The position numbers and the translations under genes are program-made. From Bacteroidia bacterium (GTDB lineage Bacteria; Bacteroidota; Bacteroidia; Cytophagales; Cyclobacteriaceae): a stretch of DNA of 64,000 nt. Positions 28,350-48,500 of this stretch are shown piece by piece. The stretch's first letter is position 1, and each line of letters begins with the position of its first letter. The stretch covers positions 62,001 to 126,000 of the forward strand of contig JAUIAO010000002.1 of NCBI GenBank assembly GCA_030425425.1, read 5' to 3'. Below the pieces are notes generated by a model that saw nothing but the letters and a program-made list of their open reading frames with translations, did not search any database and was not told where the DNA came from.

Positions 28350-28389
28350 GGTCAATGAAGTTCTTCATCAAAGATAAGTCAGAGAGGGG

Positions 28390-30739: not shown

Positions 30740-31081
30740 ATGGAAAATAGACTTTTAATTAATTGTAAATACAAGGTTGATTTCATTGATGTATCTCAAA
30801 TCACTTTTGTGAAGGCAGATGAAGGTTATTCTCACATTCATCTTAATGATCAAAGTGTTTATGTCCAAACTAAAACTTTAAGCGAAGTACATGAATTGAT
30901 TGGTGATTTTGGATTTATCAAAGTATGCCAATCATATTTGGTCAATATTGAATATATACAGTCCTTGGATAAAAAGACAAGGGAAGTTATTCTAAAGTGT
31001 GGGTACAGAATACCTTACACTTTAAATTTAAAACAACTGATTGGAATGGTTGAAGGTTATTTTAACCTGAATAAGGCGTAA
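30740..31081 (+). CDS. Stand-alone LytTR DNA-binding regulator
   Basis: The 113-residue protein is essentially only a LytTR domain: VSQITFVKADEGYSHIHLNDQ, then TKTLSEVHELIGDFGFIKVCQSYLVNIEYI and the final basic strands. The F-x-K-V-C-Q-S-Y-L-V-N element corresponds to the R-x-H-R-S-x-x-V-N region of the family. No receiver domain is attached. It precedes the glycan/Ser-Gly peptide cluster by ~190 bases in the same direction and is the best local candidate for its regulator. Confidence 0.88.
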   Translation: MENRLLINCKYKVDFIDVSQITFVKADEGYSHIHLNDQSVYVQTKTLSEVHELIGDFGFIKVCQSYLVNIEYIQSLDKKTREVILKCGYRIPYTLNLKQLIGMVEGYFNLNKA

Positions 31082-31273
31082 TTTGATTTTTTTCAATAGC
31101 ATTTTTTATCAAATCTGGAATTCTTTCAATATCAGCTAGAATACAGGGTATATCGGCTAGAAAATATGAATTAATCGTTTATGCCTGTATTTTGATGAAT
31201 TAGATATAATGTTATTTAGCTTGCCTCAGGAATAGTTTTTAATTTGAGTAGTTGTGTATAAAACATTTACCTT

Positions 31274-31798
31274 ATGTCAAAAGAGTTTTTTCGGATTCGG
31301 CGTGTTTTAAAATTTGGATCAATTAGTACGTTCAATACTTTATTGGATTTTGGGGTATTTTTTATTCTATATGAGGTATTGAGTAATTCAGTTGATATTT
31401 CTCAGGTGTTCGGTTATTTGTGTGGAATGACGAGTGGTTATTTCCTGAATTATTATTTGACTTTCAAAAGGATGAATCCCTATATAAATAGAAGAGTTCA
31501 ATTCTTTTTGTTCATCATAATCCATCTTTTTACTTTATTGGTAGCAATCCTCCTATTGAATATTTTTATTGGGGAATTGGGCTTCGAGTGGATTTGGGCC
31601 AAATCCATTTTGCTAATCGTAACGTTTTCAATTAACTACACAGGGTCGAGTCTATTGGTATTTGGAAATACTTTGATCCGTAGAAAGTCTGAAATTAATA
31701 CAAATACAAACCCGAGCTTTGTCAGCTGGTCTCATCATGAATTTAGATTTCAAGATAAAAGTATCTGTCACCCATCAAACATTGAGCGAACTATATGA
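31274..31798 (+). CDS. GtrA-family membrane protein
   Basis: The 174-residue protein has four predicted membrane helices and the GtrA pattern: RRVLKFGSISTFNTLLDFGVFFILYE at the start, then GYLCGMTSGYFLNYYLTFKR. GtrA-like proteins are proposed to flip or handle polyprenyl-linked sugars for cell-surface glycosylation. The cytoplasmic tail after the last helix (~40 residues) is longer than usual. It overlaps the next gene by ATGA and begins a chain of four coupled genes. Confidence 0.88.
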   Translation: MSKEFFRIRRVLKFGSISTFNTLLDFGVFFILYEVLSNSVDISQVFGYLCGMTSGYFLNYYLTFKRMNPYINRRVQFFLFIIIHLFTLLVAILLLNIFIGELGFEWIWAKSILLIVTFSINYTGSSLLVFGNTLIRRKSEINTNTNPSFVSWSHHEFRFQDKSICHPSNIERTI

Positions 31799-33216
31799 AA
31801 GTGGCAGTAATAGGAGCGGGGCCTGCAGGTCTCAGTGCAGCTTATTTATTAAGCAAGAATAATATAAAGGTTGACGTGTATGAGGCAAGCGATTCAGTAG
31901 GAGGAATGTGTCGTTCAATTGTGTTGTGGGATCAAATAGTGGATATTGGGCCCCATCGGTTTTTTAGTAATGATAAAAAGGTCAATGAACTGTGGTTAGA
32001 AGTCATTGGTGAAGATTACCAGATGGTCAATAGACTCACCAGGATCTACTACAAGAATAAATTCTTCTATTATCCACTGAAATTAGGAAATGTCTTAAGA
32101 AATATTGGATTAGTTGAGGCAGCCATGTGTGTACTCAGCTATATGTTCCAGCGCTTGAAAAAAGAAGATGATGTCAATTCTTCGTTCGAAGCCTGGGTGA
32201 CCAATCGATTTGGAAAGCGCCTATACAACATGTTTTTTAAGACCTATACGGAGAAACTTTGGGGCATAACATGCGATAAGCTTGATGCTGATTTTGCAGC
32301 ACAGCGGATCAAGAAACTTTCTCTTTTCGAGGCTGTGAAGAATGCTTTTTTGAGTGGTAAAGGAAATAAGCATAAAACCCTTGTTGATCAATTTGCCTAC
32401 CCTAGATTAGGTACCGGTCAGGTGTACCAGAAAATGTCGGATTATATCTCTGCCCATGGAGGAAAGATACACTTGAAATCACCTGTTTACAGAATTGATA
32501 CTAAGGTTAACCAAGTAAAAGGCTTAGAGTTAATCAATGGTGATTACATAGCGTATGACCATGTGATTAGTTCGATGCCTTATACAGCTATGGTTCAAAG
32601 GTTACCAGAGGCGCCTGAGCCAATAGTCAAAAGCTCCAGAAAACTGACTTACAGAAATACAGTCATTGTTTATTTGAAAGTCAATGCTACAGATCTATTC
32701 AAAGACAATTGGCTGTATGTTCACTCACCAGAACTGAAAACGGGAAGGATTACCAATTTCAGAAATTGGGTGCCGACACTTTACGGAACTGAAGAGAAAA
32801 CAATTCTTGCTCTTGAATACTGGTGTAATGCGGATGAGGACATGTGGACAGCCAGGGACGAGGAACTAATTCAAATGGCTCGTTCAGAGCTTGAGCAGAC
32901 TGGGCTCGCGAAAAAGGATCAAATTGAAGATGGTTATGTCCATAGAATCAATAAATGTTACCCGGTTTATAGTCGGGGCTATAAGCAAATACTTAAGCCC
33001 ATTGAGGAATGCGTTACCTCAGTGAAGGGACTTTCTGCCATTGGAAGGTATGGAGCATTTAAATACAATAATCAAGATCACAGCATATTGATGGGGATTA
33101 TGGCTGCTGAGAACATCATGGGACAGGCCGATCATCGACTGGAAGATGTCAACTCTGACTATGAATCATATCAGGAATCTTATGTGGTCACTAATACAGG
33201 ACTGGTGAAGCAATGA
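31795..33216 (+). CDS. FAD-dependent oxidoreductase, UDP-galactopyranose-mutase-like
   Basis: The 473-residue protein begins with a Rossmann FAD motif (KVAVIGAGPAGLSAAYLL, Glu35 in VYEASDSVGGMCRS) and contains DIGPHRFFSNDKKV, a hallmark of a family grouped with UDP-galactopyranose mutase and amine oxidases. The C-terminal GRYGAFKYNNQDHSILMG closes the FAD site. The genomic setting between GtrA and GT-C-like proteins suggests a sugar-nucleotide or lipid-sugar substrate, but the reaction is not certain. It is coupled on both sides by 4-base overlaps. Confidence 0.82.
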   Translation: MKVAVIGAGPAGLSAAYLLSKNNIKVDVYEASDSVGGMCRSIVLWDQIVDIGPHRFFSNDKKVNELWLEVIGEDYQMVNRLTRIYYKNKFFYYPLKLGNVLRNIGLVEAAMCVLSYMFQRLKKEDDVNSSFEAWVTNRFGKRLYNMFFKTYTEKLWGITCDKLDADFAAQRIKKLSLFEAVKNAFLSGKGNKHKTLVDQFAYPRLGTGQVYQKMSDYISAHGGKIHLKSPVYRIDTKVNQVKGLELINGDYIAYDHVISSMPYTAMVQRLPEAPEPIVKSSRKLTYRNTVIVYLKVNATDLFKDNWLYVHSPELKTGRITNFRNWVPTLYGTEEKTILALEYWCNADEDMWTARDEELIQMARSELEQTGLAKKDQIEDGYVHRINKCYPVYSRGYKQILKPIEECVTSVKGLSAIGRYGAFKYNNQDHSILMGIMAAENIMGQADHRLEDVNSDYESYQESYVVTNTGLVKQ

Positions 33217-34334
33217 AATACGATTTGAGAGATATTGTTTCTGTGGGATTAGCTACCATATTTTTATGTTTTGCGGCTTTTAATAATAAGTTTCCAATTG
33301 TTACAGGAGATTCTGGCTTGTACATGGACATGGGGTTTTCAAAGAATGTTCATCAAGGCCATTCATTCATATATGGATTGTTTCTAGCTCATTCGAGCTG
33401 GCATCTTACTTTATGGCTTCCAATATTGACTCAAGGATTTTTTGTAGCATTTCTCTTGTCAATACTTTTCAAATTTTACTTTGATAACAGCAATTGGAGA
33501 GTTTATTTTATTGGATTTGTGTTGTTTTTGGTCTTTGCAACAACTGCTTCTTACACCATTTCCACAGTATCTCCTGCGATTTTCATTATTACTGGATTGC
33601 TAAGTTTATCTATACTTTACTTGCCTATACGGTTGCTTTCATACCAACAATATTTCATCTTTTTCTTATTGATTTTAGGCATGTGCATTGATATTGTACT
33701 ATTGATAGAAGCCACTGTATTTATAATAACCGTTTTTTGTCTTAAGGGGTTAAGAAAGAGTAAGGTACAGATAACACCTAATACCCTAAGGGGGCTGGTG
33801 GTTTCGTTGGTAGTAGTTTGGATAATTACATATTCTGCAAATTATTTGATTGAGTTCACCAACAATAGTCATCAAGATCAATTAATCATGGTAGATTCTT
33901 TCAGTGACTATCAGACCAAATTATTTGATTCATTTGGTCGATTGCAGACGGTGGGGTTTAAATCAGATCATGAAGTTACTCCTAAGTCAGCTATATATAA
34001 ATGGTATCATGATCAATTTAGGGAATATGTGATATCTTCTCAGTCTTGGGGGGAGCTTTCTATAACAATTCTGAATTACAGTACGCTAATCCTTGTGGTA
34101 GTTGGAGTGCTAGGTTATTTGGTTATCAGAAATAGAGAAAATATTGAAATGACTCACTTCTTATTCATACTTCTACCAATCTTTTTAGTGTGTCACCCTT
34201 TTTGTTCAGCTATTTTCAAACTTAGCCCAACGATCTCAATAGGGAGTGTTATTTGGATAATGCTGCTACCAATTTATATCAAGTTCATACCTGTGATAAA
34301 CAAAGTCATTCATGTTAACCGGAGTATAGTATGA
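33213..34334 (+). CDS. GT-C-like multi-spanning membrane protein, paralog A
   Basis: The 373-residue protein has about nine to ten hydrophobic helices. After the first helix it carries NKFPIVTGDSGLYMDMGFSKNVHQ and IYGLFLAHSSWHLTLWLPILTQ. An acidic residue in the first outer loop (DSGLY) is where GT-C glycosyltransferases keep their catalytic Asp. The next gene has the same pattern, so the two are paralogs. No full family match was recognised; a lipid-linked-sugar transferase is inference. Confidence 0.72.
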   Translation: MKYDLRDIVSVGLATIFLCFAAFNNKFPIVTGDSGLYMDMGFSKNVHQGHSFIYGLFLAHSSWHLTLWLPILTQGFFVAFLLSILFKFYFDNSNWRVYFIGFVLFLVFATTASYTISTVSPAIFIITGLLSLSILYLPIRLLSYQQYFIFFLLILGMCIDIVLLIEATVFIITVFCLKGLRKSKVQITPNTLRGLVVSLVVVWIITYSANYLIEFTNNSHQDQLIMVDSFSDYQTKLFDSFGRLQTVGFKSDHEVTPKSAIYKWYHDQFREYVISSQSWGELSITILNYSTLILVVVGVLGYLVIRNRENIEMTHFLFILLPIFLVCHPFCSAIFKLSPTISIGSVIWIMLLPIYIKFIPVINKVIHVNRSIV

Positions 34335-35714
34335 AGCCTGTTTTGTTCAACATTTTGATATTTATTCTTTGTATTATCACTTTATGTTCATTGGGTATTT
34401 ATAATGGATTTCCATTTGTTTTTAATAGTGACACGGCAGTGTACCTCGAGGAAGCTTATTACAAGGTATTACATCCAGAAAGACCCGCTATCTATGGGCT
34501 ATTCTTGCAAATTTTCAGCCTTGATTATTCTTTATGGCTAGTTATACTGACACAAGCTATGATGATAACAATCATAATATTTTTGGCTTTTAAGCACCTG
34601 GGCTCTAGGAAAGTACAGGAATTTAGATGGTATTTTCTAACTTTTATTTTGATTGTTTCTTTGGGTATGGGTGCGTCATTTAATGTATCCAGGTTAATGG
34701 CTGATGTGTTTACACCTGTTTGTGTAATTTCTGTGGGAATACTACTTTTTGGCCGAAATGTAAAGCTCATTGATAGAATTTTATTGATACTATTCACCCT
34801 TATTGGTGTATCCATGCACAACACGAACATGTATGTGTGCATTGGGAGTATATTCATTGTTTGGTTGATCAATGAGTATAGTTCAATTACTAATAGGTTG
34901 GTGCCTTTTAAAAAATTCACTCTTACTCTGACAATAGTATTCAATGGCTTATTATTCTCAGTTACGATTCATTATTTGAATTGGCAGGAGTTCAAAACTC
35001 CCAGAGGAGGTGCGGTTTTCTTGTTTGCGAATATGGTTGAAATGGGTATTGTTGATCAGTATTTAAAGGAGCATTGTGAAAAAAACGATTACAAGATCTG
35101 TGAATACAAGAAGGATATACCTAATAATTTTTTATGGGCAGATAATAGCCCGATGAATAAAACAGGAGGTTGGGTGGCCAATGAACAGGAGTATAAAGAG
35201 ATATTAATAGATATTTTGAAGCACCCAAAGTACCTATTTGAATTAGCTTACAAGTCAATTCTGCTTACTGGGAAACAATTCTTTATGTATGATATTGGTG
35301 GAGTATTTATTCCGTCAGAAAGGATTGATGAAACAGTTCGAAGATTCTTTCCAGATGATTTTTCAAGCTACATGAGCTCCAAGCAACATCAAGATACCTC
35401 GGACTTTCAATTCATCAATTATACCCAGAATGTTATAGTAGGCGTTTCTTTCCTTTTCATATTTATAGTCTTAGTCCAGGGATATAAAACCACAAATGAA
35501 ATTCGCTTGCTATGTCTTTATATTTTGATTGCTTTATTGGTCAATGCCTTTATATGTGGAACGGTTTCAGGTGCTTTTTTTAGATACCAAAACAGACTTG
35601 TATGGTTGTTGCCATTACCACTATTTATTCACCTATCGAATCTATTTTATTTCAATAAAAGTAAAAGGGAAAAGAGTACCCCTTCAAGTACTCATCGTTT
35701 AAATTTAATTTCTT

Positions 35715-35725
<11 letters not shown>
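34331..35725 (+). CDS. GT-C-like multi-spanning membrane protein, paralog B
   Basis: The 464-residue protein has about ten membrane helices. Its first outer loop reads NGFPFVFNSDTAVYLEEAYYKVLHPERPAIYGLFLQIF followed by SLWLVILTQ, matching paralog A residue for residue at the key positions. It is longer through a soluble segment (~residues 230-330, including NFLWADNSPMNKTGGW). The Ser-Gly peptide gene starts 11 bases before its stop codon, so the peptide is translated in the same run. A role in glycosylating that peptide is a hypothesis from context. Confidence 0.72.
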
Positions 35726-36203
<478 letters not shown>

Positions 36204-36210
36204 TTAACCA

Positions 36211-36247
36211 TAAATACTGGTAAACTCTTGTTTGCCAGTATTTATTT
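36211..36247 (+). terminator. Strong hairpin between peptide and propeller genes
   Basis: TAAATACTGG pairs perfectly with CCAGTATTTA across a 14-base loop, followed by a T-rich stretch. It starts 8 bases after the peptide stop. It may end most transcripts and let some read into the propeller gene, giving more peptide than partner proteins. Confidence 0.75.
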
Positions 36248-36271
36248 CAATCAAATTCAAGTTACCTATAG

Positions 36272-37498
36272 ATGATAAAATCCCTTAAATGTCCTAATAT
36301 ATATTTAGTATTCTGTTTATTATTTGCAAGTATATCATGCTCAGAATACAAATCAGAGCAATCTCAAAGTGTTAATTATGAAGAATTAAATGTTATTAAA
36401 ATAGATAAGGTATCTAAAAAAATGATTTCCATAGATTCTCTTATCGTGCCAGGATCAATAAATTTCATTCCTTTAGAGACTACCACTAATTCTTCTTTTG
36501 GATCTGTAAGTAAAATATTTTTAACGGATTCATCCTATGTTATTTTTGATGCTCAATTGGAAAGTGTATACCAATTCAATAAAAAAGGAGGATATATTAG
36601 AAAAATTGGAGAAGAAGGGAAAGGTGCATTGGAATATACAATGATTAAAACTTTGTCATTAAATAAATCGGAAGGTACTTTGGATATATTAGATGTCAGC
36701 AAAAGGCTAATTAAATATGATGTTTCAACTGGTAAGGCATTGCATGAGCGAAAATTAGATTTTGATAACTTTACGGTTGATGAATATTTTGCAATTGACA
36801 ATAATAAATTTATTGTATATAATAACTTCAGGTTAGATATGTCTAAGCCTCAGGATACACTTTACCGTTTGAGATATTTGAATAATGACATTACTATTTA
36901 CCAGGGTTTGCCTTATGAATTTAATCTAGAAAAGAAAATTCACCCTCATCGTACAAGGCATAGTATTTATAGCTATCAAGGAAACACTCATTTTTTTGAA
37001 CCATTTAATTCGTTGGTTTACTTGCTTAATGAAGATGGTATTGAAGTAAAATATGAAATAAAATATGAATTAACCGAGGAAATTTCTACTCAGGAGAAGG
37101 TTAAAAATTTGCTAAATGGATCGCAAGATTTAAATCGACAATATTTGGGTAAGGTGATGGAAACAGAAAAGTTTTTGTTTTTAGAGTTTTCAGAGGCGCT
37201 GAAAGGACAAAGTGTAAGATTTAGGAGATATGCTTTGTATGATAAGGAAAATGAGAAGTGTCTTGGTAATTCCATCTATTCCTATTTTATCGTAGAATTA
37301 GGACTTGAAGTTTTTTTACATCAGCTATCTGATCAATTATTTGTAGCGGCAGTTCCTGCAGATGTGATTGTTAAGTATCAAACTGCATATAATGATGCTT
37401 TATCTGAAGATGAAATTTCACCGCTTATACAGGAGGTAATAAATCTTAAGATAGATGTAGCCGATAATCCAGTTTTGATTTTGATGAAGCTGAATTAG
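36272..37498 (+). CDS. 6-bladed beta-propeller lipoprotein
   Basis: The 408-residue protein has a lipoprotein signal (lipobox SISC, Cys23). The body resembles the Bacteroidota 6-bladed beta-propeller group (BF3164/DUF4934-like), seen in blades such as FIPLETTTNSSFGSVSKIFLTDSSYVIFDAQLESVYQFNKKGGYIRKIGEEG. Members are often found beside small exported peptides. It lies 68 bases after the Ser-Gly peptide gene, beyond a hairpin, and 47 bases before the thioredoxin-like gene. It may bind or display the peptide at the surface. Confidence 0.75.
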   Translation: MIKSLKCPNIYLVFCLLFASISCSEYKSEQSQSVNYEELNVIKIDKVSKKMISIDSLIVPGSINFIPLETTTNSSFGSVSKIFLTDSSYVIFDAQLESVYQFNKKGGYIRKIGEEGKGALEYTMIKTLSLNKSEGTLDILDVSKRLIKYDVSTGKALHERKLDFDNFTVDEYFAIDNNKFIVYNNFRLDMSKPQDTLYRLRYLNNDITIYQGLPYEFNLEKKIHPHRTRHSIYSYQGNTHFFEPFNSLVYLLNEDGIEVKYEIKYELTEEISTQEKVKNLLNGSQDLNRQYLGKVMETEKFLFLEFSEALKGQSVRFRRYALYDKENEKCLGNSIYSYFIVELGLEVFLHQLSDQLFVAAVPADVIVKYQTAYNDALSEDEISPLIQEVINLKIDVADNPVLILMKLN

Positions 37499-37545
37499 TT
37501 ATTTACTATTACTTTTTTTTCAGTTTTGATTGAAAGTATAAGCTT

Positions 37546-38181
37546 ATGAAAAAGACAAGCATTGTATTAGCTTCGATAACTACATTTTTTGTAGCGATTT
37601 ATTTTTTTATCTATATCCAGAAGATACGTCATTATGAAACATATATTCAGTCCCTGGAAGAGACTTTAAGTTTGAAAAATGAAATCATTGATAAAGTGAA
37701 CTCCTTTATTCTAACAACGGCTAAAGATGAGAATAAAAGACTAAATATTAATGAGCTATCATCTTTAGAATATGAAAAATTATCTAATTATAACAAGCCA
37801 TTGTGCTCACTACCTCTTTTGGTAGTTAGGCTTAGTGAAGGACAGTGCTCCGATTGCGTGCGAAATTTACTAAATATACTTCAAGAGAAAATTCCTCAGG
37901 CTTTAGAAAAAAGAGTTGTGATTCTTACTGACTTTTCCAGATACTTTTATGCTAAAAAATTTGTAGAAGAGAATCCGGACATTCCTTTTGCATTTAGAAA
38001 TATGAAGAGAACAAAAGCTGTGTTAAAGTCTGATTTTTATAACGCCCCATATATTTTTGTTATTGATAATGACAGTAAAATTAACAATGTGTTAATACAT
38101 TTAACGGATGAGCCAGAAAGAACCAAACAATATATTGTGGCTATGATATCTAAATTTTTGCTAGAGGCGGAATCCAAATAG
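37546..38181 (+). CDS. Membrane-anchored thioredoxin-like CxxC protein
   Basis: The 211-residue protein has one N-terminal membrane helix (residues ~5-24), a short coiled coil (~30-55) and a thioredoxin-like domain with CSDC at 101-104, in the pattern LLVVRLSEGQCSDCVRNLL. A late YIFVIDNDSKINNVLIHL matches the final strands of the fold. Orientation would place the CxxC in the periplasm. The Ser-Gly peptide two genes upstream has four cysteines after its leader, a plausible substrate for oxidation or isomerisation. Confidence 0.72.
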   Translation: MKKTSIVLASITTFFVAIYFFIYIQKIRHYETYIQSLEETLSLKNEIIDKVNSFILTTAKDENKRLNINELSSLEYEKLSNYNKPLCSLPLLVVRLSEGQCSDCVRNLLNILQEKIPQALEKRVVILTDFSRYFYAKKFVEENPDIPFAFRNMKRTKAVLKSDFYNAPYIFVIDNDSKINNVLIHLTDEPERTKQYIVAMISKFLLEAESK

Positions 38182-38361: not shown

Positions 38362-38645
38362 AATCGCCTTGATTCATAAGGTTCAAACATGGCTTTTGCC
38401 CAGTCGCTGCGAACCAAAGATCTACATTTCCTATTCCATGTGGGGAGCAATTGCTTCGGAGTACATAATGAAGTGACCAATAAGCTCGAAGGAGCATTGT
38501 CACGCTTGCGTAACATCGAAAAACTGGAATCCAGAACATGGGATGGATGAGGTAATGTACTCTCTGATATTAACTCAAGATGTTGATCTTGAGGCTGTGC
38601 GTTTTGGGGTGCCGCACTCATTAGGCAGTTATATGCTGAGATATG
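38362..38645 (+). pseudogene. Decayed copy of the 5' part of the RND permease gene
   Basis: The stretch aligns with 38846-39120 of the intact permease gene downstream, about 484 bases away. Shared blocks include CATGTGGGG, AATGAAGTGACCA-TAAGCT and AGGCAGTT. In frame the relic still reads PKIYISYSMWGA but is broken by small indels and stops. ORFs called here on the minus strand are shadows of it. Confidence 0.85.
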
Positions 38646-38783
38646 TGAAAGAGATGTATGCTAAACTATGAGCATGACACAGGTAGAGGTTCAGGGCTAA
38701 TTAGAGCTACTATTGGTATTTTTATGGTTTATTTTATCATAAAGAGATTGTATAATTAGCTTAATTGTTTTTAGAATGATTTG

Positions 38784-41700
38784 ATGATACAAAACAATTC
38801 TTCTTTTTCCATCTTAACCACATTTACTGTTCTGGTACTAATCGGAATTGCCTTGACTCCTAGGGTGCAAACAAGGCTTCTACCCAATCGCTACGAGCCA
38901 AGGATCTATATTTCCTACTCCATGTGGGGTGCCAATGCGATAGTAGTGGATAATGAAGTGACCAGTAAGCTGGAAGGAGCATTTTCAAGGTTGCAGGATC
39001 TGGAGAAGCTGGAGTCCAGAACTTGGGGTGGGGGAGGAAATATTACCCTTAAATTAGATGAAGATGCTGATATTGATGCTGTGCGTTTTGAAGTGGCCGC
39101 ATTGGTCAGGCAGTTGTATCCTGATCTACCGGAAGGGGTGAGCTATCCCAGTGTGAGCATGGCTGGGGCAGAAGATCAGGATCGTCCGGAGCGGTTGATG
39201 GGTTTCACACTTTCCGGGCAAGGGAGTAATACGGAAATAGGCGCTTGGGCAGAACAGTATTTGGTGCCTGCCTTCTCAGAAGTGATCGATGTGGAAGATG
39301 TCTATGTCTTTGGCGCTTATCCTTATGAATGGGAATTGGTGTATGATCAGGAGAGGTTAAAGGATTTGGGGATCAGGCCATGGGAAATTGCCAATCAGAT
39401 GAGGAATTACTTTCATCGAGCTGATTTGGGAAATGTGAAGGAACAAACTTTTTCCGGGCAGCAGCTGGCTATTCCGGTAGTGTATCAGGGGCTACTGGCT
39501 GATGAGTTTGAAGAGCATGTCATGCTTCGACAGTCTCAGCATGACAAACGTGTCACACTGAGCCTGCCGAAGAGAGACACGAGGCAACCATTCACTATCC
39601 GCCACCAAGGCAGACTTTTCAATCTCTCCGACCTGGTAAAAGTGAGGAAAGTAACTGAAGTGCCTCGTCGCTATGAGCGCATCAATGGATTGGATGCGGT
39701 GAATATATTGGTGACTGCTCGTGGGTCGGCGAATTTCATCGTCAGTGCGGATGCCCTAAGAAAGGTGGCCGAAGAACTGACGACTAAGCTTCCAGAAGGT
39801 TATTCACTACAAGTAAATTATGATGCTTCTGAGTTTATCAAAGATGAACTGCAAACGATCATTCTCAGGGTTTCTGCTTCATTGTTGGTGCTACTGCTTT
39901 TTGTGTATGCAGTGAGTAGAAGCTTGCGCTATTTTGCTATTGTCACCTTGTCCATTTTAGTGAATGTCATCATTGCTTTTGCGGTCTATTATTTTCTGGA
40001 TATTTCCATCCATTTGTATTCACTGGCAGGCATTGCCATTTCTTTAGGAATTATCATTGACAATACCATAGTGGTGGTAGATCAGCTTCGTCATGGCAAA
40101 GGACTGAATGTAATCCGTGCAGTGGTGGCGGCTACATTGACGACTATAGGTAGTTTAATTATCGTTTGGTTCCTGGATCCTGAAACTCAGTTGAAATTGA
40201 TAGATTTTACATGGGTAATGATCATCAACCTGTCATTGTCGTTGTTGGTTTCATTCTTCTTTGTGCCGGCGCTGATGGATAAGCTACCACTCAGAAAGCG
40301 GGATTTATCGCGAAGAATGAAGAAAACACGTCGGATCGTCAGGTTTACAAGATTCTATGGCCGGCCAGTCTTCTGGCTTAATGGTAAGCGTTGGCTGGTG
40401 TGGCTAATCCTGATTTTGGGTTTTGGGCTGCCTATATTTATGCTACCAGGTCATATCAAAGGAGATCAGTTTTACACTCGTTGGTACAATAACGTTTTTG
40501 GAAGTCGCTTTTATGTCGAAACCATTAAACCTGTCAGTGATGTGGCCTTGGGTGGAGTGTTAAGACTTTTTGTACAAGGTAATCAAGGCCAGCGTTTCAA
40601 CCGGTCTGATGAACGCACAGTGCTGAATGTGTCGGGAACTATGGATGATGGCACTACGCTCGAAAAGACGAATGAAGTTTTCCAGCGAATTGAGAATTTT
40701 CTTGCTCAGTATGAGGAGATAGAGCAGTTCCAGACTTCTATCTATAGTCCATCCTCTTCGCGATTGAGCATTATATTCAGACCGGAGGAAGAACATGGAG
40801 GTTTTCCTCACCAGCTGAAAAGTGAATTGGAGCGTTTCTGTATAGATCTGGGTGGTGCCGATTGGCAGATCAGTGGTGTAGGACGAGGATTTGATAACAG
40901 CCTGCATGAAGGACGTAGGAATAACCGGATGACGCTTTATGGTTATAACCTGGATGATCTGAAAGGCTATGCCGATAAACTAAAAAATTACCTGCTCGAA
41001 ATCCAGCGTGTTGACGATGAGTCCATTTTTATCAATGGCCGGGCTACTTACAATTCTAAGATTCACCGGGAATATGAACTTGCCTTTGATAATGACAAAA
41101 TGATGCGTTCGGGGATTTCTCGCGGCTCATTGTTGGGTAATCTTCGGGATTTGTCAACAGACAGGAATTATGTAATGACTGCATTCAACCAGGGACAATA
41201 CGAAAATGTATTTATGAAAGCTGATGAAGCTTCAGTCCCTGATATCTGGGAGTTTACCAATCTACCTTTAGAGCTTGGTAATGATCGATATACAAAGTTT
41301 CAGGAATATGGAAACTTTACTAAAATACGTCAGCAAGACCTCATCAATAAAGAAGACATGCAATACACCATGGTGGTAGAGTTTGATTTTATCGGTAGCT
41401 GGGGACAGCAGCAGTATTTTCTGGGCCAGGTGCAGGACAGGCTTAATCAGCAATTGCCCATAGGCTATTATGTGAAACCAATGCAGAACTTTGGAGGAAG
41501 ATGGGGAGAGGAAGAAGAAGGACATAAAAAGCTATGGTTAGTATTGCTTGTTGTTGGTATAATCTTTTTTGTGAGTTCAGTTGTATTCGGATCGCTTTTG
41601 CAGCCTTTGATGGTGATCTTGTTGATCCCAGTATCTTTTATTGGTGCATTCCTCACATTTCATTTGTTTGATATCCCTTTTAATGAAGGTGGTTTTGCTG

Positions 41701-42008
41701 CGCTGGTATTGCTGAGTGGGTTGACTGTCAACTCGGTTATTTACATCCTGAATGATTTGAATCAATTGAGAAAAGACCGTCTGGGATTGTCACAAAACAG
41801 GTTATACCTTAAAGCTTTTAATCAGAAAATTATACCAATTTTATTGACTATTGTTTCTACTGTATTGGGATTAGTTCCATTTCTGTTTGGTGGTGAAGGA
41901 AATACTTTCTGGATGTCCCTTTCGGCTGGAACGATAGGTGGCTTGTTGTTCTCAATTTTAGGGATAATGATTATTTTGCCGGTGTTTGTGAAGAGAGGAT
42001 TTGGTTGA
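38784..42008 (+). CDS. RND efflux permease, first copy
   Basis: The 1074-residue inner-membrane pump subunit has the two-fold RND plan: one helix near the N-terminus, a large periplasmic porter domain, helices ~345-500, a second porter domain and helices ~915-1070. The transmembrane acidic site is in ISLGIIIDNTIVVVDQL. ATG 38784 is preferred to the TTG at 38781. The N-terminus lacks the usual FIERP start of such proteins. An adaptor, TolC and a second permease follow, so this is probably half of a heteromeric pump. Substrate unknown. Confidence 0.92.
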   Translation: MIQNNSSFSILTTFTVLVLIGIALTPRVQTRLLPNRYEPRIYISYSMWGANAIVVDNEVTSKLEGAFSRLQDLEKLESRTWGGGGNITLKLDEDADIDAVRFEVAALVRQLYPDLPEGVSYPSVSMAGAEDQDRPERLMGFTLSGQGSNTEIGAWAEQYLVPAFSEVIDVEDVYVFGAYPYEWELVYDQERLKDLGIRPWEIANQMRNYFHRADLGNVKEQTFSGQQLAIPVVYQGLLADEFEEHVMLRQSQHDKRVTLSLPKRDTRQPFTIRHQGRLFNLSDLVKVRKVTEVPRRYERINGLDAVNILVTARGSANFIVSADALRKVAEELTTKLPEGYSLQVNYDASEFIKDELQTIILRVSASLLVLLLFVYAVSRSLRYFAIVTLSILVNVIIAFAVYYFLDISIHLYSLAGIAISLGIIIDNTIVVVDQLRHGKGLNVIRAVVAATLTTIGSLIIVWFLDPETQLKLIDFTWVMIINLSLSLLVSFFFVPALMDKLPLRKRDLSRRMKKTRRIVRFTRFYGRPVFWLNGKRWLVWLILILGFGLPIFMLPGHIKGDQFYTRWYNNVFGSRFYVETIKPVSDVALGGVLRLFVQGNQGQRFNRSDERTVLNVSGTMDDGTTLEKTNEVFQRIENFLAQYEEIEQFQTSIYSPSSSRLSIIFRPEEEHGGFPHQLKSELERFCIDLGGADWQISGVGRGFDNSLHEGRRNNRMTLYGYNLDDLKGYADKLKNYLLEIQRVDDESIFINGRATYNSKIHREYELAFDNDKMMRSGISRGSLLGNLRDLSTDRNYVMTAFNQGQYENVFMKADEASVPDIWEFTNLPLELGNDRYTKFQEYGNFTKIRQQDLINKEDMQYTMVVEFDFIGSWGQQQYFLGQVQDRLNQQLPIGYYVKPMQNFGGRWGEEEEGHKKLWLVLLVVGIIFFVSSVVFGSLLQPLMVILLIPVSFIGAFLTFHLFDIPFNEGGFAALVLLSGLTVNSVIYILNDLNQLRKDRLGLSQNRLYLKAFNQKIIPILLTIVSTVLGLVPFLFGGEGNTFWMSLSAGTIGGLLFSILGIMIILPVFVKRGFG

Positions 42009-42231: not shown

Positions 42232-42450
42232 TTGTTGAATTTTAAGAGTATTATAGAAATGAATTTAAGAGTATTTATCGAAATGAAAAAATTCAAAGAA
42301 TTGAAAAATTGGATTGTAAACGGGTTTCTGTGCAGTCTCTCCCTACAACCATCACCTATCACCTATCAACTTGATAACCCCACCAGACAACCAACAACCA
42401 ACAACTCCGCTCCCACCGCCCAACAACCAACAACCAACAACCTGTTGGCC

Positions 42451-43500
42451 ATGTGCATCGTCCTCAGCCTATTGATGCTGTTTGCTTCATGCACTTCATC
42501 AGACACAAAAAACTCCCTCGCCATGACGCGCTCAGAGTACAAGGAAGAGCGAAATGTTGTAGTAGTCAACAAGGCAGAGGAAGGAGATTTTTTTAAGGAA
42601 TATGTGAATAATGGGGTATTGCAGGCCAGTCAAAGCGCACAAATTTTATTTGAAGAACAAGGAAATATCGAGAAGGTTTTGGTTGCTAATGGTGATTATG
42701 TGAAAAAAGGTCAACTGTTAGGAAGGGTTGAGGATCAGCAACAGCAATATAATTATGACAGGTCAGTACGCAATCTAGAAAAAGCACGATTGGAGATGGC
42801 TACCATGCTGATAGAGCAGGGATATAAGCTTGCCGATTCTAACAATATTCCAAATGAAGTTTATGAGCGTGCTAAAGTAAAATCAGGTTATTATGATGCA
42901 ATCAATGATCAGGAGCTAGCATCAATCAAGTTGGCACATACACGATTAGTAGCACCTTTTAATGGAGTAATAGCTGATCTGGAGGCTAAAGCCAATAACC
43001 AGACTTCACAGTACAAACAGTTTTGTCAATTGATCAACAATGCAGCATTTGAAGTAGAATTTCTAGTATTGGAGTCTGAGTTGGAAGATATGGAGCCGGG
43101 AATGACTGTAGAAGTGAGTCCTTTTGCCTATCCAGAATATTCATGCTCGGGAGAGATACATACTGTTAATCCCAAAGTAGAAGAGAGTGGTATGGTGAAA
43201 GTCAGGGCAATTGTGAAGAATATGGATGGAAAACTCGCAGAGGGCATGAATGTGAAAATTTTAGTGAAGAAACTCATAGGGAAAAGGGTATTTGTTCCAA
43301 AAGAAGCTATTACACTCAGGCAAGAGCGAGATGTGGTGTTTACCCACAGAAATGATACAGCTTTTTGGAACTATGTGAGAGTCGGCCCCACTAATTCAAA
43401 ATACACGGTGATTGAAGAGGGTATCCGGTCTGGTGATGAAGTTGTGGTTGAAGGAAATTTCAATTTAGCTCATTTGGCAGTGGTGGAGGTGATAGACTAG
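42451..43500 (+). CDS. RND periplasmic adaptor lipoprotein
   Basis: The ATG at 42451 gives a 349-residue lipoprotein (MCIVLSLLMLFASC lipobox) with the adaptor plan: a lipoyl half-motif VLVANGDYVKKGQLLGRVED, a short alpha-hairpin, the second half TRLVAPFNGVIADLEAKAN, then a beta-barrel and membrane-proximal domain. The open frame extends upstream to 42232, but residues from there are encoded by C/A-rich repeat sequence (PTTNN-type runs) and look like inserted repeats. It links the RND permeases to TolC. Confidence 0.88.
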   Translation: MCIVLSLLMLFASCTSSDTKNSLAMTRSEYKEERNVVVVNKAEEGDFFKEYVNNGVLQASQSAQILFEEQGNIEKVLVANGDYVKKGQLLGRVEDQQQQYNYDRSVRNLEKARLEMATMLIEQGYKLADSNNIPNEVYERAKVKSGYYDAINDQELASIKLAHTRLVAPFNGVIADLEAKANNQTSQYKQFCQLINNAAFEVEFLVLESELEDMEPGMTVEVSPFAYPEYSCSGEIHTVNPKVEESGMVKVRAIVKNMDGKLAEGMNVKILVKKLIGKRVFVPKEAITLRQERDVVFTHRNDTAFWNYVRVGPTNSKYTVIEEGIRSGDEVVVEGNFNLAHLAVVEVID

Positions 43501-43828: not shown

Positions 43829-45289
43829 ATGAAGAGAATATTCTTAATATCGTTGATTGTTAATATATCCATCTCCGGACACTCCCAAGCAGTCCGTCAA
43901 ATAACTATGGATGAAGCGATAGCTCTAGCCTGGGAAAATTCGTTCGATGCTTACAGCAATAATTATAGCTATGAGTTGAGTAGGTTGAACTGGATGGATC
44001 AGAAATATGGATACCGACCCACCATTAGCCTTGGTTCTACCATTTCGGATTATACACGCTCTATTCAGGAGCAGTGGGATTCAGAAGAGCAGAAGATGCT
44101 GCCTTACGAAGTTCAGTGGTTGGTCAACTCTGCAAGTTTGAATTTATACCAACCCGTTCCCTTCACCGGTGGATCGGTTAGTGTTTATTCTGGTCTTCGG
44201 AGAAATCAAAATTTTGCAGAAACAGGCAATGTTTTGAATTATGTTTCCACTCCTGTTCGCTTTTCATACAGTCAGGATTTTAGCAAGCCCAATTCTTTTA
44301 AATGGAATAGAAAAATTGGAGAGCTGAGATTTCTGGAGGCGAATAGCCAGAGATTGGAGAACCGAGAACAAGTAGCTATAAGGGCAATTACTGCATTTTA
44401 TGATTTGTTGATTGCACAGAATCAACTGGAAATTGCAAGCCTGAACGCCTCCAATGCAGATTCGCTGATGTGGATGGCTCAGCAGAAAAAAGAAATTTTC
44501 GCTATTACACGGTCTGATTTTTTAAATCTGGAGCTTCAGCAAACTAACGCAAAAATCCAATTGGAAAAAGCGCAAAATGATCTGGAAATGCAGCAGGTTT
44601 CGTTCAATATTTTTCTTGGATTGGAGATGGAAACAACGATTGAGTGTATAACTCAAACTGTGACCATGCCTATTGTAATTATTAATGAATTAGCCCTGTC
44701 AAAGTCCTTTGAGAACAATTCTGATATTCTGGCAATTAGCCGAAAGTTACAAGAGGCAGAAAGATCTGTGTTAGAAGCGAGACGTCAGTCTTACAGTTTG
44801 AGTATAAGTGGATCACTAGGATTGAATCAGAATAAAGGAAATATAGTGGATGCTTATTCTGATTTATTGGATCAGCAGGGTGTAGGGCTAACATTGAGTG
44901 TGCCGATTTATGATGGGGGTAGAAATGCCCGATCCTTGCAGCGCTCAAAAATGGCACTGGAGTATCAGCAGAAAGAAGCAGAGCAGAATAAGATTGAGCT
45001 AAGTCAGCAAATCACCCAGCAGGTAACCAATTTCAATATTACAGGGAATCAATTGAAGGCATATGCGAAATCTGACACTCTGGGAGCTATAGTGTATCAG
45101 GCAGTCAAAGAACGATTCATTTTGGGAAAGGCAAGTATCATAGATATGATCAATGCTGAAGAGCGGAGGCAAAATGCACGATTAAGTTACTTGCAACAGT
45201 TGAAAAGCTATTGGATTCAGTATTACGGAATCAGAAAACTTTGTTTGTATGATTTCGAACAAGGCTTGGATTTAATGATTGGTTATTAG
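43829..45289 (+). CDS. TolC-family outer-membrane efflux channel
   Basis: The 486-residue protein has a signal peptide (MKRIFLISLIVNISISGHSQ) and two OEP repeats. The first helical pair lies around residues 170-250 (REQVAIRAITAFYDLLIAQNQLEIASLNASNAD), and the second half holds VGLTLSVPIYDGGRNARSLQRSK, the usual entry to the second repeat. It forms the outer-membrane exit duct for the RND pump encoded around it. Confidence 0.92.
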   Translation: MKRIFLISLIVNISISGHSQAVRQITMDEAIALAWENSFDAYSNNYSYELSRLNWMDQKYGYRPTISLGSTISDYTRSIQEQWDSEEQKMLPYEVQWLVNSASLNLYQPVPFTGGSVSVYSGLRRNQNFAETGNVLNYVSTPVRFSYSQDFSKPNSFKWNRKIGELRFLEANSQRLENREQVAIRAITAFYDLLIAQNQLEIASLNASNADSLMWMAQQKKEIFAITRSDFLNLELQQTNAKIQLEKAQNDLEMQQVSFNIFLGLEMETTIECITQTVTMPIVIINELALSKSFENNSDILAISRKLQEAERSVLEARRQSYSLSISGSLGLNQNKGNIVDAYSDLLDQQGVGLTLSVPIYDGGRNARSLQRSKMALEYQQKEAEQNKIELSQQITQQVTNFNITGNQLKAYAKSDTLGAIVYQAVKERFILGKASIIDMINAEERRQNARLSYLQQLKSYWIQYYGIRKLCLYDFEQGLDLMIGY

Positions 45290-45569: not shown

Positions 45570-48500
45570 ATGATCCGGTTCCTCATAGAAAGACCAGTTT
45601 CAGTACTCATGGTTTATCTCGCCATAGTGTTGCTAGGTATAGTTTCATTTTTTAAAATTCCTGTTTCTCTTTTACCTGATGTAGCTATACCAGAGATTAC
45701 GATTCAGGTCAGTGCACCTGACAAATCCGCTGTTCAGATGGAGGAAAATTACATAGCTAGAATTCGGAGAAGCATGCAGCAGGTAGCTCATCTGGAAGAT
45801 GTAGAAACCTTTGCAACTAATGGATCTAGTCGTATTCGTCTGGTGTTTGATTTTGGTACGGATTTACAATACGCATTTATTGAAGTGAATGAAAAGATAG
45901 ATGCGCTCATGCAGAATATGCCGGATGAATTTGAACGTCCACGCGTCATCAAAGCATCTTCTACGGATATTCCCGTGTTTTATTTGTCTGTTGGACTTAA
46001 GGAAGGATTGGAAGATGGTTTGGGCAACCGGTTCATGGAGTTAAGTGCATTTTCTGAACAAGTCATCAAACGTAGAATTGAGCAGTTGTCTGAAGTAGCG
46101 ATGGTGGATATTAGTGGAATGGAGTATCCGGAGATTCACATCCAGATTGATTTAGGAAAACTGGAAATCCTGGGATTGAATCCACAATCACTACAGTCAG
46201 TATTGGAACAGAATAATCTTTCTGCCAGCAATATTAAGGTGAGAAATGGATTGTATGAGTTTAATGTAAAGTACTCCAGTCTTTTGAAAAACCGGCAGGA
46301 TATCGAGAATCTTACCTTACTCACTGGGAATCGAATTTTTAAACTGTCTGATGTAGCCAATGTGATGGTGAAGCCGAGAAGTGGAAAGGGATATACTCTG
46401 GACAAAACGAATAAGGTCATAACCATGGCGGTGATCAAAAAATCTACCGCACGCATGGAGGAATTAAAACAGAAAACAAATGAACTTTTAGATGCCATTA
46501 GGAAGGATTATCCCAGGCTGAGATTTGAAGTCACCAGAAATCAGACAGAGCTTTTGGATTACAGCATCGCCAACCTGAAAAGTAGCCTGGCAATTGGGGC
46601 GATTTTAGCCTTTTTGGTGCTCTTCCTATTTATGAAGGATTTACGCTCACCACTTCTGATTGGTATCTCTATACCGGTCAGTTTGATTGTGAGTTTACTG
46701 GCATTTTATCTTCTGGATGTTTCTATCAACATCATCTCCCTGTCAGGATTGGTAGTAGGTGTTGGATTGATGATTGACAATTCAATTATCGTAATAGATA
46801 ACATCAATCAAAGTATTAAAAGTGGAAAAGGAGATTTAGTGGAAGATAGTGCGACTGGAGTTGTAGAAGTCATTACACCTCTGATTAGTTCGGCCTTAAC
46901 CACGTGTGCGGTGTTTGTGCCACTTATTTTCCTTGGAGGTATCGCGGGAGCATTGTTTTATGATCAGGCCATATCCATTTCCATTGGTCTTGCCTCTTCT
47001 CTGATTGTTTCAGTCACCATTATTCCCGTCTTATTCGTTTTGTTTTCAAAGTCAAGGTGGAAATCGATCAAACTACCCGGGAGCAAGGCATATCTGGAAA
47101 ATGCCTATGAAATAGGGTGTCATTGGGTGGTCAATCATAAATCTCTTTTCACCTTCGGAACCTTTGTCCTTTTGGTTGGAGGGGCAGTCGTTTATTTTGT
47201 GCTGGATAAAGAGCGCCTGCCGGCAATGGAGCAGCAGGAAGTGGTGGCAACTATAGATTGGAATCAGAATATACATATTGATGAAAATCGAAAAAGGATT
47301 GAATCTCTGATAAGCGATTTCAGTGATTATACCGCTACCGTTTCAGCTTCAGTGGGTGACCAATGGTTTTTGATGGACTGGACCAATAACCTTACCAATA
47401 CACAGGCTCAGGTATATTTCAAGAGTCATAGTGAGGATTCATTAAAACTTTTTGTTTCAGAGCTGGAAGGGTGGATGAAGGATCATTTTCCTCGTGCCAA
47501 TTATGAACTGCATCCTCCAGAGAACCTCTTTGAGAGGGTTTTTAACACCTCTCAATCGCCATTGGAAGTAAGGCTATCTGCGAATGGAGCAAAACCTTAC
47601 CCTGATGCGGAAATATTAAATGAAATCATCTCTTCAATTCAAGAACGTACCGGTTTGAAGCCTACAGTAAAGCCTGCCATGCAGGAAGTGTATGAGCTAA
47701 AACCTCAGTTCGAAAAGCTACTGCTGTATGAGGTGGATCCTAATATCCTCATTCAGACGCTCAGGGCATCAATGAACCAACTGTCAGTTTTCACGCTTCG
47801 ACAAGGTCAGACTGAGGTACCGGTGGTCATTTCAGAAAAAGAGTCCAAAGACATTGACCATATCTTACAAACGACTCAGGTAAGATCCGGTCAGGAGGCT
47901 TTGATACCTGTGAATCAACTATTAATAGCCAGAAAGATTTTGGGGTATAAGTCACTTTCCGGAGATGCCAACCATCCATTTGTCCGGCTGCCGTATGCAG
48001 TGAAAGACTCAGAAGTAGAAAGTGTGATCCGGGAAGTAGAAGCTGTGATGGACAAATTCCCGAATATAATGGTTGATTTTAGTGGAAGCATATACCAAAC
48101 AAGGCAACTGCTTTCAGAGCTGTGGATCATATTCCTGGTGGCCGTTTTGCTGCTGTATTTTATTCTGGCTTCCCAGTTTGAATCTTTGTTGCAGCCATTG
48201 ATCGTCTTTATTGAGATTCCGATAGATATCGCTGGGGCACTGTTATTTCTATGGCTTTTTGGGCAGAGTTTCAATCTGCTGGCGCTGATAGGGATGATCG
48301 TAATGTCCGGGATTATTATCAATGACTCCATCCTTAAAATAGATACCATCAATCGCCTGAGGAAAACTGGCCTTTCCATCGATGATGCAATCCGAAAAGG
48401 AGGGAAGCGTAGGCTCAAACCTATCATTATGACTAGTGCTACGACTATCCTGGCGATGGTACCTTTCCTATGGGGGAGTGATATGGGATCAGTGCTTCAG

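What the first reader, a model, noticed from the sequence alone, without database searches (positions are those of the whole stretch)
30740..38181. Candidate undescribed Ser-Gly peptide surface system
A LytTR regulator, a GtrA-like protein, a UGM-like FAD enzyme and two GT-C-like paralogs run into an exported (Ser-Gly)10 peptide with a cysteine tail. A propeller lipoprotein and a membrane CxxC protein follow. The first four genes and the peptide are chained by 4- to 11-base overlaps. Ser-Gly dipeptides are well-known O-glycan attachment sites in eukaryotic proteoglycans; whether bacteria do this here is inference. The set would supply a regulator, sugar handling, transferases, a substrate, a binding protein and a disulfide enzyme.
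Basis: partly seen in the sequence, partly recalled or inferred. Interest (0 to 1): 0.78.

Follow-up and report, generated by a model that had tools for sequence, protein, structure and literature searches.

The report
Bacteroidota peptide maturation and export cluster
The Ser-Gly peptide looks like one member of a large, little-studied family of small exported peptides in Bacteroidota, encoded with a beta-propeller lipoprotein, a thioredoxin-like protein, a signal peptidase and an efflux-type exporter; here a set of sugar-transfer-like genes sits where an O-antigen-ligase-like gene often sits.

Summary
The genes are real, with two corrections: LytTR lies 192 bp from GtrA (no overlap), and the cluster runs on to about 52580. 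The window peptide's leader (N-terminal helix, linker, L..L..AxA) resembles those of 74 peptides in related clusters; 7 of 30 sampled match Pfam NVEALA (PF14055), the window's does not. Those clusters, across Bacteroidota, hold a Wzy_C/TPR (O-antigen-ligase-like) protein, the peptide, a 6-bladed propeller, a CxxC thioredoxin-like protein and HlyD-RND-TolC, often with a transglutaminase-like protein and signal peptidase I. The window has all of these but Wzy_C; both its RND pumps fall in clades of cluster pumps. Directly before the peptide, where Wzy_C often stands, it has GtrA, a PRK07208 FAD enzyme and two GT-C-like genes, seen in 0 of 80 related loci. Best reading: a periplasmic peptide maturation and export system, the GT-C operon perhaps replacing the Wzy_C step. 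Glycosylation of the Ser-Gly stretch is plausible but unproven, and the Wzy_C family lacks the WaaL/PglL catalytic His. The repeat is a TCTGGY microsatellite, read as an expansion of a Gly-rich start. Six full-text searches aimed at the system (open-licence papers only) showed no description of it.

The parts
30740..31081 (+). LytTR DNA-binding regulator; 34% identical to the LytTR that precedes Wzy_C and peptide in Marinoscillum furvescens
   Evidence: PF04397 1.6e-14; BLASTP 2e-20 against L079:1720-2067
31274..31798 (+). GtrA/DPMS-type membrane protein
   Evidence: PF04138 3e-19; 192 bp after LytTR
31795..33216 (+). PRK07208-type FAD enzyme (UGM-like, not a UGM by cut-off)
   Evidence: NF005548 541 bits over cut-off 389
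33213..34334 (+). GT-C-like polytopic protein 1 (shorter paralog)
   Evidence: 10 hydrophobic segments; paralog of the next gene; conserved Asp; no Pfam hit
34331..35725 (+). GT-C-like polytopic protein 2
   Evidence: 9 hydrophobic segments; homologs 26-32% identical in four other genomes, one beside a gene that I read as DPM1-like (not scanned)
35715..36203 (+). exported leader peptide: helix, linker, AMA|Q site, (SG)10S, beta-type domain (by eye), C-x5-C-x4-C tail; four Cys after the site
   Evidence: leader profile 13.0 bits, 0 of 500 whole-leader shuffles reach it
35865..35927 (+). TCTGGC/TCTGGT hexamer repeat coding (Ser-Gly)10-Ser
36272..37498 (+). 6-bladed beta-propeller lipoprotein, the only PF17170 match (E 0.01 or better) in this genome assembly
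   Evidence: PF17170 1.2e-35; one match in the genome; 50% identical homolog in G001
37546..38181 (+). membrane-anchored CxxC thioredoxin-like protein
   Evidence: model pLDDT 84.6; Foldseek hits are peroxiredoxin, ResA, CcmG and TlpA-type proteins; CxxC in 20 of 20 aligned rows, which were picked partly by that motif
38362..38720 (+). broken 5' copy of the RND gene (pseudogene)
   Evidence: direct repeats 78-82% identical to the intact gene's start; stops in all three frames
38781..42008 (+). RND permease 1, in a clade of 14 rows that holds only pumps of these clusters
   Evidence: PF00873 1.9e-85; trees
42232..43500 (+). HlyD-type adaptor (true start probably further in)
   Evidence: PF16576 2.9e-14
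43829..45289 (+). TolC-type outer membrane factor
   Evidence: PF02321 5.1e-34
45570..48617 (+). RND permease 2, in a second clade of 32 rows that holds only pumps of these clusters
   Evidence: PF00873 4.1e-167; trees
48571..49776 (+). signal peptidase I (S26)
   Evidence: PF10502 1.1e-37; profile match in 34 of 80 related loci
49785..52580 (+). transglutaminase-like protein of the type found near Wzy_C in related clusters
   Evidence: used in building the TG2 profile; 37% identical to part of the gene near the genome's own Wzy_C; Pfam hits only below cut-off

Best explanation
It is a periplasmic peptide maturation and export system of Bacteroidota. A small precursor is carried to the periplasm by its N-terminal helix. 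A membrane enzyme of a sugar-transfer type acts on it: often a Wzy_C/TPR protein, here perhaps the GtrA-FAD-GT-C-GT-C set. The neighbouring signal peptidase I cuts at the AxA site, the thioredoxin-like CxxC protein sets its disulfides, the propeller lipoprotein receives or escorts it, and the HlyD-RND-TolC complex carries the mature peptide out. Shown: the gene set, its recurrence, the leader type, mostly even cysteine counts, pumps that group by cluster. Inferred: every functional step, above all sugar addition to the Ser-Gly stretch and export by the pump. The peptide's final role (antagonist, signal or surface component) is open; near-constant leaders with freely varying mature parts in most arrays looked at favour a secreted effector or signal over a structural protein.
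For: 80 Wzy_C loci: 60 hold a propeller-type gene, 51 a pattern-matched peptide, 44 an RND, 42 a CxxC gene (some by motif alone), 41 HlyD, 36 the transglutaminase-like protein, 31 TolC, 34 signal peptidase I. Of the 49 with at least 9 kb on both sides: 45 propeller-type gene, 35 peptide, 30 RND. For scale, 163 RND matches lie in about 99 Mb of 19 related genomes, about 0.04 per 22 kb (my division; a stricter criterion than the labels). 31 of 81 pattern-matched peptides follow Wzy_C directly. 69 of 74 retained peptides have an even number of mature Cys; the window has 4. In three of four genera with several copies, leaders are 78-85% alike and mature parts 12-24%, shuffled baseline 16%. RND tree with 70 other RNDs: 43 of 45 cluster RNDs and both window RNDs form two clades without any other row. 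A sample taken by RND1 instead of Wzy_C: 10 of 13 loci hold a propeller-type gene. M. furvescens has LytTR-Wzy_C-peptide-propeller, the window LytTR-GtrA-FAD-GT-C-GT-C-peptide-propeller.
Against: Most counts come from loci chosen for Wzy_C (best 80 of 202, several from one genome), so they are conditional; in the RND1-led sample Wzy_C is in 2 of 13 loci. The window peptide does not match PF14055, and 2 of 500 shuffles that keep its helix score as high on the leader profile. The Wzy_C family has Phe for the WaaL/PglL catalytic His in 78 of 79, so it may not be a glycan ligase. Propeller and mature-peptide similarity do not go together over 38 pairs (partial rank correlation -0.16; 1929 of 2000 permutations as high or higher). 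One genus of four (Aestuariibaculum) does not show conserved leader with variable mature part. Two of 45 cluster RNDs lie outside the two clades (L179 among other RNDs; L144 in a pair with a G006 pump just outside), and a 46th (L168) was left out of the second tree for its long branch. The GT-C replacement is a single case.
Confidence: 0.6

Rival explanations
1. The GT-C operon glycosylates the Ser-Gly stretch of the peptide, as protein O-mannosyltransferases do with Ser/Thr-rich secreted proteins (recalled): GtrA moves a polyprenyl-phosphate sugar, the FAD enzyme alters the sugar, the GT-C proteins transfer it to Ser. This is the bold form of the best explanation, not exclusive with it.
For: Four-gene chain overlapping the peptide start by 11 bases; occupies the slot of Wzy_C; the GT-C homolog in G142 sits beside a gene that reads like a DPM1-type transferase. 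PRK07208-like genes lie directly beside proteins with 7-9 hydrophobic segments in 3 of 6 other genomes, and within two genes of one with 6 in a fourth. O-oligosaccharyltransferases are often encoded beside their acceptor (PMC3643930: 21 of 31 PglL homologs beside pilin genes; abstract and passages seen).
Against: No sugar donor, acceptor or activity shown; the GT-C family is unassigned and a profile search of solved structures gave only unrelated hits; only one genome shows the arrangement; the Ser-Gly run is a microsatellite, none of the 81 sites listed is followed by such a run, and Ser/Thr is not enriched in the first eight mature residues.
Confidence: 0.35
2. The peptides are secreted antagonists (bacteriocin-like) and the propeller or a partner gives immunity.
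For: Arrays of peptides with near-constant leaders and unrelated mature parts; peptide and propeller side by side in 59 of 104 cases.
Against: Propeller similarity does not follow mature-peptide similarity; no bacteriocin family among the Pfam or NCBIfam hits of 30 peptides.
Confidence: 0.25
3. The peptide is a signal read by the LytTR or other regulator of the cluster, with the propeller as sensor or carrier.
For: LytTR at the head of the window cluster and of one M. furvescens cluster; weak hits of single peptides to pheromone families.
Against: LytTR in only 3 of 80 loci; the pheromone hits (E 0.0008, 0.024, 0.085 over 30 scans) are near chance.
Confidence: 0.2
4. The GT-C operon and the peptide module are unrelated neighbours in an AT-rich variable stretch and only share a promoter.
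For: GT-C homologs occur without peptides and peptides without GT-C; LytTR, GtrA, GT-C, propeller and CxxC genes are AT-rich (GC 0.30-0.34) against 0.39 for the window, the FAD gene is not (0.41).
Against: Four consecutive overlaps up to and into the peptide gene; same slot as Wzy_C.
Confidence: 0.35

Closest known systems
NVEALA proteins (Pfam PF14055)
   Same: small exported peptides with a helix, linker and A-x-A end of the leader, near 6-bladed propellers; 7 of 30 sampled peptides match the model
   Different: the window peptide does not match the model, is longer, and carries a Ser-Gly run and a beta-type domain
PglL/TfpO-type O-oligosaccharyltransferases with an adjacent acceptor gene (PMC3643930 and PMC12645811, abstracts and passages seen)
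   Same: a Wzy_C-superfamily membrane protein encoded directly before a small exported protein in related clusters; two Arg aligned with the essential WaaL ones kept in 79 of 79
   Different: Phe for the catalytic His in 78 of 79; C-terminal TPR; no such gene in the window cluster itself
RND tripartite exporters (PF00873, HlyD, TolC)
   Same: full set present, with two RND genes as in heteromeric pumps such as MdtBC (recalled)
   Different: the RNDs group with pumps of other peptide clusters and are encoded with peptide, propeller and signal peptidase
Bacteroides thetaiotaomicron BT0662 (O-antigen ligase family) and BT0664 (6-bladed beta-propeller)
   Same: listed two gene numbers apart in one expression table (PMC10434189, one passage seen), so the unit may exist in a laboratory strain
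   Different: the passage gives changes only (-9.3 and -4.2, with 0.132 and 0.353 in the column I take to be p); BT0663 is not named there and I did not see the sequences

Membership tests
NVEALA (PF14055) | match to the Pfam model | tested here: not met
   no hit for the window peptide; 7 of 30 scanned peptides hit, best 1.4e-11
NVEALA-like leader peptides of these clusters (defined here) | helix, linker, L..L..AxA leader | tested here: met
   13.0 bits against a profile of 67 other leaders; 0 of 500 full and 2 of 500 partial shuffles as high
NVEALA-like leader peptides of these clusters (defined here) | propeller directly downstream, even Cys count | tested here: met
   68-bp gap to a PF17170 gene; four mature Cys
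PglL/WaaL O-antigen ligase superfamily (for the Wzy_C proteins of related clusters) | Wzy_C domain and two essential Arg | tested here: met
   PF04932 1.7e-16 to 1.5e-19 in the 6 scanned; Arg 79 of 79
PglL/WaaL O-antigen ligase superfamily (for the Wzy_C proteins of related clusters) | catalytic His (E. coli WaaL H338, PMC3643930) | tested here: not met
   Phe in 78 of 79, Tyr in 1; alignment to 7tpg puts H of EHAHND against F of EYAFNE (E 0.0052); that this H is the catalytic one is my reading of the motif
UDP-galactopyranose mutase | match over family cut-off | tested here: not met
   TIGR00031 56.7 of 303.75, PF03275 24.7 of 26.3
GT-C glycosyltransferases | GT-C fold, acidic residue in first outside loop | tested here: inconclusive
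   Asp conserved in 4 of 4 rows; no family hit; model too poor
Thioredoxin-like (TlpA/ResA) oxidoreductases | CxxC and thioredoxin fold | tested here: met
   CxxC at 101-104; Foldseek E 2.7e-4 to 4.1e-3 for the 50 rows shown, peroxiredoxin/ResA/CcmG/TlpA folds; TM-scores modest (0.23-0.41 by query, 0.24-0.53 by target). No Pfam hit
Serglycin-type proteoglycan | match over family cut-off | tested here: not met
   PF04360 18.2 of 30 bits, on the repeat region

The most novel reading that the evidence does not exclude
A widespread bacterial route in which small disulfide-bonded peptides are sugar-modified in the periplasm by a dedicated membrane transferase (a His-less Wzy_C protein, or in this genome a GT-C pair acting on a Ser-Gly repeat), cut by a dedicated signal peptidase and exported by a dedicated RND pump: a glycopeptide secretion system of Bacteroidota.
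Probability: 0.25. Interest if true: 0.85.

Novelty: new variant of a known kind. Interest (0 to 1): 0.62.

Why it matters
If right, many Bacteroidota (202 Wzy_C relatives in one scan), Bacteroides among them, make families of secreted disulfide-bonded peptides through one recurring gene set whose parts carry mostly 'unknown' labels today. That would give a function to the NVEALA, DUF5128, DUF4221 and TolB_like families at once, assign a natural cargo to two clades of RND pumps, and make the role of these Wzy_C/TPR proteins testable. The window adds a case where a GT-C operon stands where Wzy_C often stands, which hints at what that step does.

Tried and rejected
Ser-Gly system as such: rejected. 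The peptide search over 341 genomes of the order gave 15 other genomes with weak matches (best E 2.1e-4), mostly over the repeat; I did not inspect them one by one. Proteoglycan/serglycin likeness: rejected. UGM: rejected. Cognate peptide-propeller co-variation: tested, not found. GT-C structure: the single-sequence model is unusable and was not searched. Solved relatives of GT-C: only unrelated hits. The Wzy_C search over the order scored only 3 candidates per genome and the RND1 search only 2, so both undercount.

Papers: six searches aimed at the system and two for O-oligosaccharyltransferase precedents. One search found 68 papers and listed 20; one search listed 6, of which one names BF3164 (PMC1887533) and was not opened. 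Three papers were opened for passages only. The library holds only open-licence PMC papers, so this is weak evidence of absence.

Filters and dropped rows: the 81 peptides are a pattern match; 7 were then dropped by eye as not leader-like, leaving 74 for and, after joining with PF17170-type propellers and removing identical ones, 37 plus the window. CxxC counts include genes recognised by motif alone, and the rows were picked partly by that motif. DUF4221 is counted as propeller-type by its place and size; Pfam calls it unknown. The 80 loci are not all independent: L100/L159, L113/L114, L131/L161, L135/L139, L142/L143 and L155/L168/L179 share a genome each. The RND tree was repeated with 40 newly fetched RNDs (and one held before but not used) as a control.
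Full report
What is there. GtrA, FAD enzyme, GT-C1, GT-C2 and the peptide overlap by 4, 4, 4 and 11 bases; LytTR is separated from GtrA by 192 bp, so it is not in the overlap chain. The FAD enzyme belongs to PRK07208 and not to UDP-galactopyranose mutase. The two polytopic proteins are paralogs with an Asp kept in all four aligned rows; they match no Pfam or NCBIfam family above cut-off and the structure model of the longer one failed, so 'GT-C' is a reasonable but unproven label. The peptide carries (Ser-Gly)10-Ser encoded by a TCTGGC/TCTGGT hexamer repeat.

The window in its kin. GT-C2 homologs were found in 4 of 146 genomes besides the window's own, one gene each (a fifth, weak hit to GT-C1 only was not followed up). 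None of these four loci (three of 18 kb, one a 10-kb contig) holds a leader peptide, propeller, CxxC or RND gene by my profiles and pattern. The propeller led elsewhere: a congener, G001, has a 50% identical propeller. Its contig C10 holds a cluster of propellers with an exported Cys peptide, a CxxC gene and an RND pump 64% identical to the window's. In that cluster and in a second one of the same genome (C19) the gene directly before the peptide is a Wzy_C/TPR protein of the O-antigen ligase superfamily.

The wider family. A scan of one genome per species (84,980 species held, by the tool's description) with eight Wzy_C proteins returned 202 relatives, of which the best 80 were kept; by record title they are Bacteroidota except one labelled Campbellbacteria (L121) and one Balneolaceae (L127). 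Labelling their neighbours with profiles built here gives: a propeller-type gene (PF17170, DUF4221 or TolB_like) in 60 of 80, pattern-matched peptide in 51, RND in 44, CxxC in 42, HlyD in 41, transglutaminase-like protein in 36, TolC in 31, LytTR in 3, GT-C in 0. Pfam gave DUF4221 or TolB_like for 8 of 10 unlabelled genes tested beside peptides. Signal peptidase I is in 34 of 80; GtrA, the FAD enzyme and GT-C in 0. Of 49 loci with at least 9 kb on both sides, 45 have a propeller-type gene, 35 a peptide and 30 an RND. For scale, 19 related genomes hold 163 RND matches in about 99 Mb, about 0.04 per 22 kb, by a stricter criterion. Of 104 propeller-type genes 59 have a peptide directly upstream and 42 a CxxC gene directly downstream; 31 of 81 peptides directly follow Wzy_C, 25 have no labelled gene close upstream, and 25 follow other labelled genes. 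These counts are conditional on Wzy_C. A second sample taken by the window's RND1 over 395 genomes found 13 loci in 12 genomes besides the window; 10 hold a propeller-type gene and 2 hold Wzy_C.

The peptides. They share a leader: N-terminal helix, polar linker, L..L, then AxA mostly followed by E, Q or D. Seven of 30 sampled match Pfam NVEALA. The window peptide does not match that model, but its leader scores 13.0 bits on a profile of 67 other leaders, above all 500 whole-leader shuffles and all but 2 of 500 shuffles that keep its helix. Of 74 retained peptides 69 have an even number of mature Cys, and the window has four. Within three of four genera with several copies (7, 4 and 3 peptides), leaders are on average 78-85% alike while mature parts are at 12-24%, near the shuffled baseline of 16%; the fourth (Aestuariibaculum, 4 peptides) goes the other way, 57% and 67%. 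The first eight mature residues are richer in Gly (18% against 9%) and Glu (15% against 5%), and [ST]G occurs in 23 of 74 against 16% of other 8-mers; Ser/Thr itself is not enriched (17% against 19%). I therefore read the Ser-Gly run as an expansion of a Gly-rich start. The C-x5-C-x4-C tail of the window resembles those of the L102, L133 and L146 peptides, a likeness seen by eye, not tested.

The rest of the window cluster. After the CxxC gene come a broken 5' copy of the RND gene, RND1, HlyD, TolC, RND2, signal peptidase I and a transglutaminase-like protein. In a first tree (46 cluster RNDs, 29 others) both window RNDs fell in clades without other rows. As a control I raised the others to 70 of the 163 matches and left out one long-branch cluster row (L168): RND1 again lies in a clade of 14 rows (12 cluster, window, M. 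furvescens; support 100) and RND2 in a clade of 32 rows (31 cluster, window; support 100), none of them 'other'. Two cluster RNDs lie outside (L179 among the others; L144 paired with a G006 pump). These are quick trees with SH-aLRT support, and 93 of the 163 matches were not sampled. The grouping ties the exporter to the peptide genes independently of distance. The genome has one PF17170 match in all and a Wzy_C gene on another contig, with a transglutaminase-like gene in the same 19 kb but no leader peptide by the pattern.

Mechanism. Shown: gene set, order, recurrence, leader type, mostly even Cys, and a model for the CxxC protein (pLDDT 84.6) that resembles thioredoxin-type folds with modest TM-scores. 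Inferred: export to the periplasm, cutting by the S26 enzyme at AxA, disulfide formation, hand-over to the propeller, export by RND-TolC. The step before the peptide is the open point. Wzy_C proteins beside an exported small protein recall PglL-type ligases, found beside pilin genes in 21 of 31 cases (PMC3643930, passages). But the family here, while keeping two Arg (79 of 79), has Phe where WaaL and PglL have the catalytic His (78 of 79), so it fails a defining feature. In the window the GtrA-FAD-GT-C-GT-C set holds that position, between LytTR and the peptide, as Wzy_C does in M. furvescens. Replacement of one sugar-transfer enzyme by another would explain this, but it is one case. Of six other loci of the FAD enzyme, three have it directly beside proteins with 7-9 hydrophobic segments and a fourth within two genes of one with 6; none has a leader peptide or PF17170 propeller, two have an RND within about 7 kb, and one of these (L258) also HlyD and a TolB_like hit. 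So the operon looks like a general sugar module brought into the cluster, though L258 leaves room for a looser link.

Against the reading. No co-variation of propeller and mature peptide was found over 38 pairs, so cognate binding is not supported. Twenty of 80 loci lack a propeller-type gene; 16 of these have a flank under 9 kb, 4 do not. The window peptide is an outlier in length and sequence.

Novelty. The parts are known families; the whole was not described in any paper that the six searches aimed at it put before me (listings only, part of one list unseen). One expression study lists BT0662 (O-antigen ligase family) and BT0664 (6-bladed propeller) of B. thetaiotaomicron in neighbouring table rows (PMC10434189, one passage), which may offer a laboratory strain for tests.

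Noticed in passing
window 38362-38720: A broken 5' copy of the RND gene lies just before the intact RND (78-82% identical in blocks, stops in all frames). RND pieces outside a full RND also occur in L176 (60 residues, 72%) and, very short, L061 (18 residues), i.e. 3 of 43 sources with a full RND by near-identical pieces (other hits there are remote second RNDs or run off the locus end), as if modules were added or lost by recombination at the pump gene.
   Followed up: partly
L062:2372-13883: Four peptide-propeller modules in tandem (genome G138) separated by repeats, among them a 182-nt one (79-93% identical) and a 140-nt one (91%) whose translation looks like an RND start (read by eye), with an ATAATTC-type microsatellite.
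   Followed up: partly
L142, L143 (Arthrospiribacter ruber), L165 (Belliella kenyensis): Arrays of peptides with nearly constant leaders and unrelated mature parts beside propeller-type genes; L165 also holds pieces of a second Wzy_C gene.
   Followed up: partly
L253:1648-4851 and L258:1848-15000: Two of six loci of the FAD enzyme have RND genes nearby, and L258 also HlyD and a TolB_like hit, a possible looser link between this enzyme and such clusters.
   Followed up: partly
window 42057-42223: A run of GGTTGTTAGTTGAT-like repeats between RND1 and HlyD; the listed HlyD start probably lies too far upstream.
   Followed up: no
L105:14254-14691, L107:14429-14803, L139:14703-15101, L153:4960-5364, L062:6716-7129: A small SCGCT-motif protein (I take it for DUF1573; name recalled, not scanned) recurs near the propeller/CxxC genes, often before HlyD.
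   Followed up: no
L073:9596-9832, L081:2375-2608, L082:10454-10663, L085:4362-4595: A 69-78 aa helix-turn-helix-like protein recurs near the modules or Wzy_C genes (read by eye).
   Followed up: no
window 26406-28355 (-): M1 peptidase with a type IX secretion C-terminal signal (PF18962), upstream of the cluster on the other strand.
   Followed up: no
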